In this document: piece by piece, positions 40,055 to 43,000 of the stretch
How the letters are laid out: the number at the start of each line of letters is the position of its first letter
Numbering within the stretch: position 1 is the stretch's first letter
Origin: Xiphias gladius
Lineage: Eukaryota; Chordata; Actinopteri; Istiophoriformes; Xiphiidae
Length of the DNA stretch: 64,000 nt
NCBI RefSeq assembly: GCF_016859285.1
Contig: NC_053400.1
Location: 15,410,501 to 15,474,500 of the forward strand
Direction of reading: 5' to 3'
Position numbers and translations under genes: made by a program
The notes under the pieces: generated by a model
Seen by the model: the letters and a program-made list of their open reading frames with translations, nothing else
Databases searched by the model: none
What the model was told of the DNA's origin: nothing

Positions 40055-43000
40055 TCATAGGTGCATGCTGGGTAAGGCCTTGTGGGCAGCTGGTGGGAGC
40101 TGGATAATGTGAAATAAGGGTTCAGGAAAATAAAAAAAATAAAAAACTTGCACAGAAGTGAAAAAAAAAAAATTGCTGTTTCAAAGTTGTTTGAAACATT
40201 GATGACTAACTGTTCAACAGACTTTGAATTTCCATTGCATGTAAAGCTTAATTCTTCTAATTTGTACTGAAAATGAAGAAAAGCTGAGTGATAGTACCAA
40301 GATGTATTTCTAAAGGATATCATGTTCTCTTGCTGGAGATGGTTGAGTAGTTTCTCCACAGGTGCGTAGCGTCGTAGCGTCGTGGCAGAGCCCACCATCA
40401 GCAGCTTGTGTTTGGCCCTGGTAATGGCTACATTCAGTCTACGCCAGTCCTTCAACAGCTCTCCTAACTATTAATGGAGGGGGTTGGGTAAATCAGGTCA
40501 GGTTACCACTCACTTGTTCATTTGCTTGTTCATCCAGAAAGAGATAGGAGGCACGGAGAAGAGAGTAGAAAGATGAGTCAAAAAAAGGAGAGTTAGGAAG
40601 GAAAATACTTACATTTCCTTCCTCTGCAGTGCTCCTGACAAAAGAAAGCACAATTAGACCTTTGTCCCGTCCTTGGTATCTGTCCACTGTGTTTATCTCC
40701 ACACCGGTGAAAGCGGAGGACTGCAGCAGAGCAGAGATACTCTTTAACTGCTGTCTGTAGGGAGCGATAACACCTATATCACTGGGCTTACACCCTGCCT
40801 GAAAAAAAAGAAATAAGCAGGGGTCAGCACAATAATTAGCTACACTGATAATTTCTCTGATTTTAAAAAGCACACTATTGTAACTGTATTATACAATTAT
40901 TCTGCTATAAATACTTGAGTATCAGCCGCAGTACCTTTATCAGCAGTGAAAGCAACTTGTGTATGAGAGCTGCCTCGGTGTGATTGCTTATGCCTCCCTG
41001 CTCCACCGACTCTAGTGCTGGCACCTAAAGTAAGCAGTGGAGAGAATCAGGATTAAGACCAGCATACCTCAACACTCCATACACTCTCAAACACTGTCCC
41101 TAAATGTACTATGTGTGTCAGGCCCATAGACAGTCATGTACCCAAAGCAAACCAGCTGAAAAGCAACGTCCTATTTCATTTAGACCACTTTTTCCAACAG
41201 CTGTATCAGCTGTCTTGATTGCTCGACCTTCCACCAGACAGAAAAACTAACTGAGGTACTTTTAAATGTGTAAATGGCATGCATGGAGCATGTTTGTTTT
41301 ATGTACATTATAAGCTCATAAAAAAATGCATTGCAACTTAAACTGATTGGGGGAAAGCTAGATTAAAAACAAAACTAAGCTATGAGCTGCAAGAAATTTG
41401 CAGTACTGCTAGGTTACAAACTTCACATGGCTGGTACAGTTTTAGATGACGAGCACCATCATTCAAAATTTAAATCTTCCATTCAAATACAAAAGCCCTT
41501 TCACAGCTCCATAACACATGAATTAAAAAAAACAAAAAACAAAAAACAAAACAACAACAACTAAAAAAAAACCACCACACTGCTTTGTATTTGACCAACC
41601 ATTGAGCAATCGAGGAAGCAAACAGGGTTGCTGGGCGACAATGTGGCCTGTATCCATGTCAGGTTGTGCTGGGGATGAGTCTGAGAGTAGGAACTAAGCT
41701 CCGATTGGACTGAAAGCAGGAAAGGTAGGGTAAGCAGGGCTGAGGCTGTCCTCTCTGATCCACACTCCAGCCGGCCCTCGTACATCAGGGAGTTACTGAG
41801 AGACATTATCTGCCTGGGGAAAAAAAAAAAAAAAAAAAAAAAAAAAGCACACCTTGTTTATCACGGATGGGGAATACTTACTTTTGTCCAAACTGGTCAT
41901 GTCATGCTGTTTTGTAGTTGTCATGTAAATAGAATTAAGTTTTCTCTACAATCCTACAGCAAGACAGAGCAGCTTTAACACTCTGTCTATAAGATCAAAG
42001 TTAATCTCGAATATATTCATCACAGGTTCATAATGAATTTTACTGTATTCATATTATTTCGGACAAAAATGGTTTTAAGCTCCCCTTATATAATAGTTAA
42101 AAAAAAAAAAAAAAAAGTTAGTGGTTGAGAGTTGCGAAGGAGCCATTTGAATGGTCTTAAGGACGAAATCTTGATAAATGAGAGACTTCCGAAACATGCA
42201 GTGTTATCTGTTTATGTAGGTTTACCTGTTCATCCGATATTGTACATTGAGTTGGACCACTGCTTCACTGTGGAGCTCTAGTCGCTTAAATAGGCTTTCG
42301 TCCATCCCAAGTGACCTGGAAAAAAACAAAACAAATAAAACAAACTGATCACTATTATTTCTATGGACATCTATTTTAACTTTTCAATAATCACCTAACT
42401 GAACCCATCACATCCCCGACATATTGAATCTTCACTTTTTAAAATGAACCATTTTAATGTGAAGACTGACACTGTGTCGTGTTTTACCCTCATGAAGACA
42501 AACGACTTCAATATGTGCACTTACTTACGCCAATAGTTTTTCGATTTGCCCTTCCTTGGTACATCACAAATCAACATACACCTCATTTACGCAAAGCGTA
42601 CTTTACCTAGCTTCCAGGTTTTTCACTATTGGCGGCAGTTGTTGGTGATCTCCGACCAGGACAAATCTCTTGGCATAAAAAAGGGGTCCCAGACAGATAG
42701 GCTGGCTGATCTGTGACGCCTCGTCTACGATGCAGAAATCAAACCGCCGACGTGTGAAAATAGGATGCTTGATGCCCATACAGGTGGTTCCCACTACCAG
42801 CTAGAAAGAGAGAGGATTGGTATCCAATGATGAGACGTTTACTACAAGTGAGATGTCTTGAAGCAGGAAAAACATTGAAATCAGGTGTACAATGTTCTTA
42901 AAAACAAAAAAAAACAAAAAAAAAGCTGATTGCCGTGTGTAGTGTGCGTAAATTAGTCAAAAGGTATTGCAATTATAATATTTCACAAACTAATTTCTCA

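What the first reader, a model, noticed from the sequence alone, without database searches (positions are those of the whole stretch)
40109..40320. U12-type AT-AC intron at the end of DNA2
Seen: the exon ends ...GAGAACATG, the intron starts ATATCCTTT, there is a branch-like TTTTCCTGAAC, and the intron ends AC 11 bases later. Established: ATATCCTT and TTCCTTAAC are the minor-spliceosome donor and branch consensus, and AT-AC introns are rare. Only this junction restores [12 protein letters not shown], which aligns with the human C-terminus (IIDLPSREHESL). A GT-AG reading would give a C-terminus unlike the family. If real, a core genome-stability nuclease depends on minor splicing for its last exon.
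Basis: partly seen in the sequence, partly recalled or inferred. Interest (0 to 1): 0.75.

Follow-up and report, generated by a model that had tools for sequence, protein, structure and literature searches.

The report
Minor-spliceosome intron in DNA2 gene
The last intron of the DNA-repair gene DNA2 in this animal genome, probably a fish, carries the marks of the rare minor splicing machinery; it looks genuine, but a minor-type intron in DNA2 is already on record, so this is an ordinary example.

Summary
On the minus strand a DNA2 exon ends ...GAGAACATG at 40321; the intron is 40320..40109 (212 nt), with donor ATATCCTTT (9/9 to the U12 consensus) and branch motif TTCCTGAAC (8/9) ending 11 nt before the intron's end at AC. 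The join gives [20 protein letters not shown], aligning gaplessly with a solved DNA2 chain. Of 36,905 scored donor/acceptor combinations, the best score (50) is shared by five sliding equivalents, only one with recognised termini (AT-AC); best GT-AG 29. The other 19 modelled introns have GT-AG top candidates. A U12-type AT-AC intron is therefore well supported by sequence; no RNA evidence was available. It is not new: a 2023 review reports that U12DB lists a U12-type intron in DNA2 and suggests CRIPT may promote its splicing; that it is this same intron is my inference. One added detail: if retained, the intron stays in frame, swapping the 17-residue tail for 92 residues with the stop in the last exon, so retention might alter the tail rather than trigger decay. 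Low interest.

The parts
40321..40467 (-). penultimate DNA2 exon ([10 protein letters not shown]...NHLQQENM), end of the AAA_12 helicase domain; ends ...GAGAACATG
   Evidence: one match in the own genome at E <= 0.001 (2 candidates scored)
40312..40320 (-). U12-type 5' splice site ATATCCTTT (9/9)
   Evidence: only [AG]TATCCTT on the minus strand between 50500 and 40000
40109..40320 (-). U12-type AT-AC intron, 212 nt, phase 0, 28% GC
   Evidence: one match in the own genome, itself
40120..40130 (-). branch-site motif TTTTCCTGAAC (TTCCTGAAC is 8/9 to TTCCTTRAY), ending 11 nt before the intron end
40109..40110 (-). AC 3' splice site (an AG at 40101-40100, 9 nt downstream, would drop IIQ in frame if used)
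40055..40108 (-). coding part of the last exon: [17 protein letters not shown] and TGA stop
40042..40320 (-). open frame if the intron is retained: 92 residues after ENM, stop codon 40044-40042
   Evidence: the intron frame is open in 2.04% of 5,000 dinucleotide shuffles

Best explanation
This is the last coding-region intron of DNA2 (nuclease/helicase) in a vertebrate, probably a fish: a U12-type intron of the AT-AC subtype, removed by the minor spliceosome. By established knowledge, U11 and then U6atac pair with ATATCCTTT, U12 pairs with TTTTCCTGAAC bulging the branch adenosine, and the AC 12-13 nt downstream of that adenosine is the acceptor. The join gives the conserved tail [15 protein letters not shown]. 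It is most likely the vertebrate intron that U12DB lists for DNA2. Shown here: sequence elements, frame, homology, one place in the genome. Inferred: that it is spliced, that the minor spliceosome does it, and that it is the catalogued intron.
For: Donor 9/9 and branch 8/9 with A 12 nt from the intron end, within the 11-13 nt optimum quoted in PMC6717393 (passage). The spliced protein aligns without a gap through the junction to 5eaw_A, whereas the alignment of the read-through version ends one residue past the junction. Of 36,905 scored donor/acceptor combinations the top score 50 is shared by five sliding equivalents, of which one is AT-AC and none GT-AG; best GT-AG 29, next-best AT-AC 31. 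The other 19 modelled introns have GT-AG top candidates, with U12-donor matches of at most 6/9 among the up to two candidates printed for each. No other [AG]TATCCTT on the gene strand 50500-40000. PMC10676203 (section 16 read; passages): U12DB lists a U12-type intron in DNA2. PMC2831892 (passages, abstract among them): 156 of 180 U12 intron clusters are conserved in all eight vertebrate lineages.
Against: No RNA reads and no orthologue could be examined, so splicing is not shown. The branch motif has one mismatch. Phase 0 is the disfavoured phase of minor introns (average 22%, PMC10639083, passage; bias also in PMC7367187, passage). Donor-branch-AC arrangements arise by chance (16 of 100 shuffles; another lies at 28016-27826 with a full-consensus branch motif). 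The review names neither the intron nor the species. Three minor-intron papers whose main text I searched for it do not name DNA2: PMC12332006, PMC6717393, PMC2831892; their supplements were not searched.
Confidence: 0.95

Rival explanations
1. The last intron is an ordinary GT-AG (U2-type) intron with nearby sites, and the U12-like motifs are coincidence.
For: Motif arrangements occur by chance in sequence of this size (16 of 100 shuffles); GT-AG and GC-AG pairs exist near the exon end.
Against: The best GT-AG tail scores 29 against 50 for the AT-AC join and lacks the LPxxxH stretch.
Confidence: 0.02
2. The intron is retained as the normal C-terminus, giving 92 residues after ENM.
For: The exon frame is open through the whole intron to a stop at 40044-40042; 2.04% of 5,000 shuffles are open over the intron.
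Against: The alignment to solved DNA2 ends one residue past the junction, and the conserved tail is encoded just downstream in another frame. The open frame was noticed after the fact in one genome.
Confidence: 0.02
3. A U12-type intron with two acceptors: AC at 40109 or AG at 40100, giving tails with or without IIQ.
For: An in-frame AG lies 9 nt downstream of the AC.
Against: The solved chain has residues aligned to IIQ; the AG would lie about 21 nt from the branch A, beyond the 11-13 nt optimum.
Confidence: 0.05

Closest known systems
U12-type intron of DNA2 in U12DB, as reported in PMC10676203
   Same: Same gene, same intron class.
   Different: The review names neither intron number nor species, and U12DB was not seen; sameness of position is inferred from vertebrate conservation and from this being the only strong U12 donor found on the gene strand over 50500-40000.
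AT-AC subtype of vertebrate minor (U12-type) introns
   Same: Donor, branch motif, spacing and termini as in the class; AT-AC makes up about 22% (PMC6717393) to 26% (PMC10639083) of human minor introns.
   Different: Nothing essential; phase 0 and the terminal position are minority traits.

Membership tests
U12-type (minor) intron, AT-AC subtype | 5' splice site [AG]TATCCTT(T) | tested here: met
U12-type (minor) intron, AT-AC subtype | branch site close to TTCCTTRAY, 11-13 nt from the 3' splice site | tested here: met
   TTCCTGAAC, 8/9; second A 12 nt and first A 13 nt before the intron end; optimum from PMC6717393
U12-type (minor) intron, AT-AC subtype | terminal AC and correct joining of coding exons | tested here: met
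U12-type (minor) intron, AT-AC subtype | C at +5, unlike the U2-type AT-AC introns of sodium channel genes, which have G | tested here: met
   ATATC at +1 to +5; PMC2831892, passage
U12-type (minor) intron, AT-AC subtype | splicing depends on U11, U12, U4atac and U6atac | not testable with these tools
   needs RNA; searches of the own genome for U12, U6atac and U11 did not complete, U4atac was not asked
DNA2 nuclease/helicase | Dna2 nuclease domain, C-terminal AAA_12 helicase domain, near full-length match to solved DNA2 | tested here: met
   PF08696 E 9.7e-59, PF13087 E 1.5e-46; 5eaw_A 1159.8 bits over chain residues 37-1053 of 1056
vertebrate-conserved U12 intron of DNA2 | same position and phase in other vertebrates | not tested
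   no other vertebrate genome on hand; U12DB known only through PMC10676203

The most novel reading that the evidence does not exclude
Because this minor intron is the last one and its retained form stays in frame to a stop in the last exon, poor minor splicing would not destroy DNA2 mRNA but make a DNA2 protein with a swapped, Phe-rich C-terminus; minor-spliceosome faults (for instance in CRIPT) would then act on genome stability through an altered DNA2 tail rather than through its loss.
Probability: 0.08. Interest if true: 0.5.

Novelty: already known. Interest (0 to 1): 0.2.

Why it matters
It places, base by base, a minor-type intron before the last coding exon of DNA2. That sharpens a suggestion in print (PMC10676203) linking CRIPT, a minor-spliceosome protein, with DNA2 in Rothmund-Thomson syndrome: if the human intron is the same one, only a short tail is at stake, and retention need not lower the mRNA. 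A gene finder that allows only GT-AG would misplace this C-terminus.

Tried and rejected
GT-AG and GC-AG alternatives were enumerated and rejected on homology. Read-through as the normal form was rejected because the alignment ends one residue past the junction. The second motif arrangement at 28016-27826 was read; nothing was translated there, and I take it as chance without proof. The Rfam scan of the window at gathering thresholds gave 0 matches. I ran no scan of viral contigs or genome contigs, whose descriptions name viral, bacterial and archaeal sequence only.

Papers: ten searches, of which eight paired DNA2 with a minor-splicing term. Searches returned 0 papers. The other four listed PMC10676203, PMC11187153 and five more that I did not open (PMC13285954, PMC11596399, PMC4587777, PMC3695081, PMC7277822), so I cannot say what those state. 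PMC11187153 (passages) lists DNA2 among genes upregulated after transfection of U12 or U6atac snRNA; its passages do not mention a minor intron in DNA2.

Limits of the intron model: only GT-AG, GC-AG and AT-AC pairs were allowed; up to two candidates were printed per intron; the top junctions of introns 4 and 6 add residues absent from the solved chain, so their exact boundaries are uncertain; exons upstream of 48620 were not modelled.

Full report
Observation. The DNA2 gene lies on the minus strand. Reading the reverse complement, the exon ends ...CTCCAGCAAGAGAACATG at 40321 and is followed by ATATCCTTTAG; TTTTCCTGAAC lies at 40130-40120 and CCTTATTTCAC follows, ending at 40109; then ATTATCCAGCTCCC... 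encodes [17 protein letters not shown] and a TGA stop at 40057-40055. The intron is 212 nt long, phase 0, 28% GC.

More than chance? ATATCCTTT is found 3 times in the window against 0.72 expected, and TTTTCCTGAAC with up to one mismatch 3 times against 2.35. In the whole 691-Mb assembly the 9-mer occurs 8,322 times on both strands, against 6,927 for the pattern read backwards. ATATCCTT followed within 50-1000 nt by an AC with a branch motif of at least 8/9 at the right distance is found 2 times on the minus strand, 0 on the plus strand, and at least once in 16 of 100 shuffles of the minus strand. So the motifs by themselves prove little. Their place does: of 38,000 combinations of donor (40340-40291) and acceptor, 36,905 left a protein long enough to score against the solved DNA2 tail; the score peaks at 50 for five sliding equivalents of one join, of which only 40320/40109 has recognised termini, AT-AC. 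The best GT-AG pair scores 29.

Gene identity. Joined exon translations match PDB chain 5eaw_A, named DNA2, with 1159.8 bits, and carry the Pfam domains Dna2 (PF08696) and AAA_12 (PF13087). The last join aligns without a gap, [19 protein letters not shown] over HLNAEQLILDLPSREHESL; the alignment of the read-through form ends one residue past the junction. The penultimate exon and the intron each gave one match in the own genome (the tool scores only its best candidates), so there is no sign of a second copy.

Contrast with the other introns. In the modelled part (from 48620 downward) 20 introns were examined; 19 have GT-AG top candidates, with U12-donor matches of at most 6/9 among the candidates printed; only the last has 9/9 with a branch motif of 8/9 at 12 nt. 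For introns 4 and 6 the exact junction is uncertain. No other [AG]TATCCTT lies on the gene strand between 50500 and 40000.

Mechanism. By established knowledge of minor splicing, U11 and U6atac read the donor and U12 the branch site. The computed duplex of the branch region with a U12 segment recalled from memory is -7.6 kcal/mol against -9.5 for the full consensus; the one mismatch weakens but does not abolish pairing. C at +5 speaks against a U2-type AT-AC intron, which in the sodium channel genes has G there (PMC2831892, passage). The distance from branch to acceptor falls in the 11-13 nt optimum quoted in PMC6717393 (passage).

What is known. [quoted passage not shown] It names no intron number and no species. 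U12-type introns are highly conserved in vertebrates: 156 of 180 clusters are kept in all eight lineages (PMC2831892, passages). AT-AC makes up about 22% (PMC6717393, passage) to 26% (PMC10639083, passage) of human minor introns. The main texts of PMC12332006, PMC6717393 and PMC2831892 do not name DNA2; their supplements were not searched. The finding is thus an instance of a catalogued feature; that it is the very same intron is my inference.

A detail I did not see in the passages read. If the intron is retained, the exon frame runs open for 92 residues after ENM to a stop at 40044-40042, inside the last exon. The intron frame is open in 2.04% of 5,000 dinucleotide shuffles. With no junction downstream, the 50-nt rule quoted in PMC6717393 (passage) would not predict decay. 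This was noticed after the fact in one genome, and I give it a low probability of mattering. An in-frame AG 9 nt after the AC would drop IIQ if used.

Verdict. Observation confirmed, interpretation supported by sequence, novelty low. RNA evidence and a look at U12DB itself are the missing pieces.

Noticed in passing
40042-40320 (-): The retained intron is open in the exon frame: 92-residue, Phe-rich alternative tail with the stop in the last exon.
   Followed up: partly
40100-40101 (-): An AG 9 nt downstream of the AC acceptor would give an in-frame join lacking IIQ.
   Followed up: partly
27826-28016 (-): A second ATATCCTT ... TTCCTTAAC ... AC arrangement, 191 nt, with a full-consensus branch motif; coding context not examined. 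Taken as chance.
   Followed up: partly
8348-8848 (+): RUN-domain match (PF02759); it looks like a RUFY gene near DNA2, as I recall for human RUFY2. The ORFs at 4900-5271 and 6635-6955 (+) gave no Pfam family.
   Followed up: partly
54783-55748 (-): C2H2 zinc-finger protein ORF upstream of DNA2.
   Followed up: no
about 8370-8450 (+), 37130-37310 (+), 50730-50860: Long CA/TG microsatellites, seen as repeats in translated ORFs; positions approximate.
   Followed up: no
39162 and 38975 (-): Nearest poly(A)-signal hexamers found downstream of the DNA2 stop: ATTAAA at 39162 and AATAAA at 38975, implying a 3' UTR of about 0.9-1.1 kb if used.
   Followed up: no
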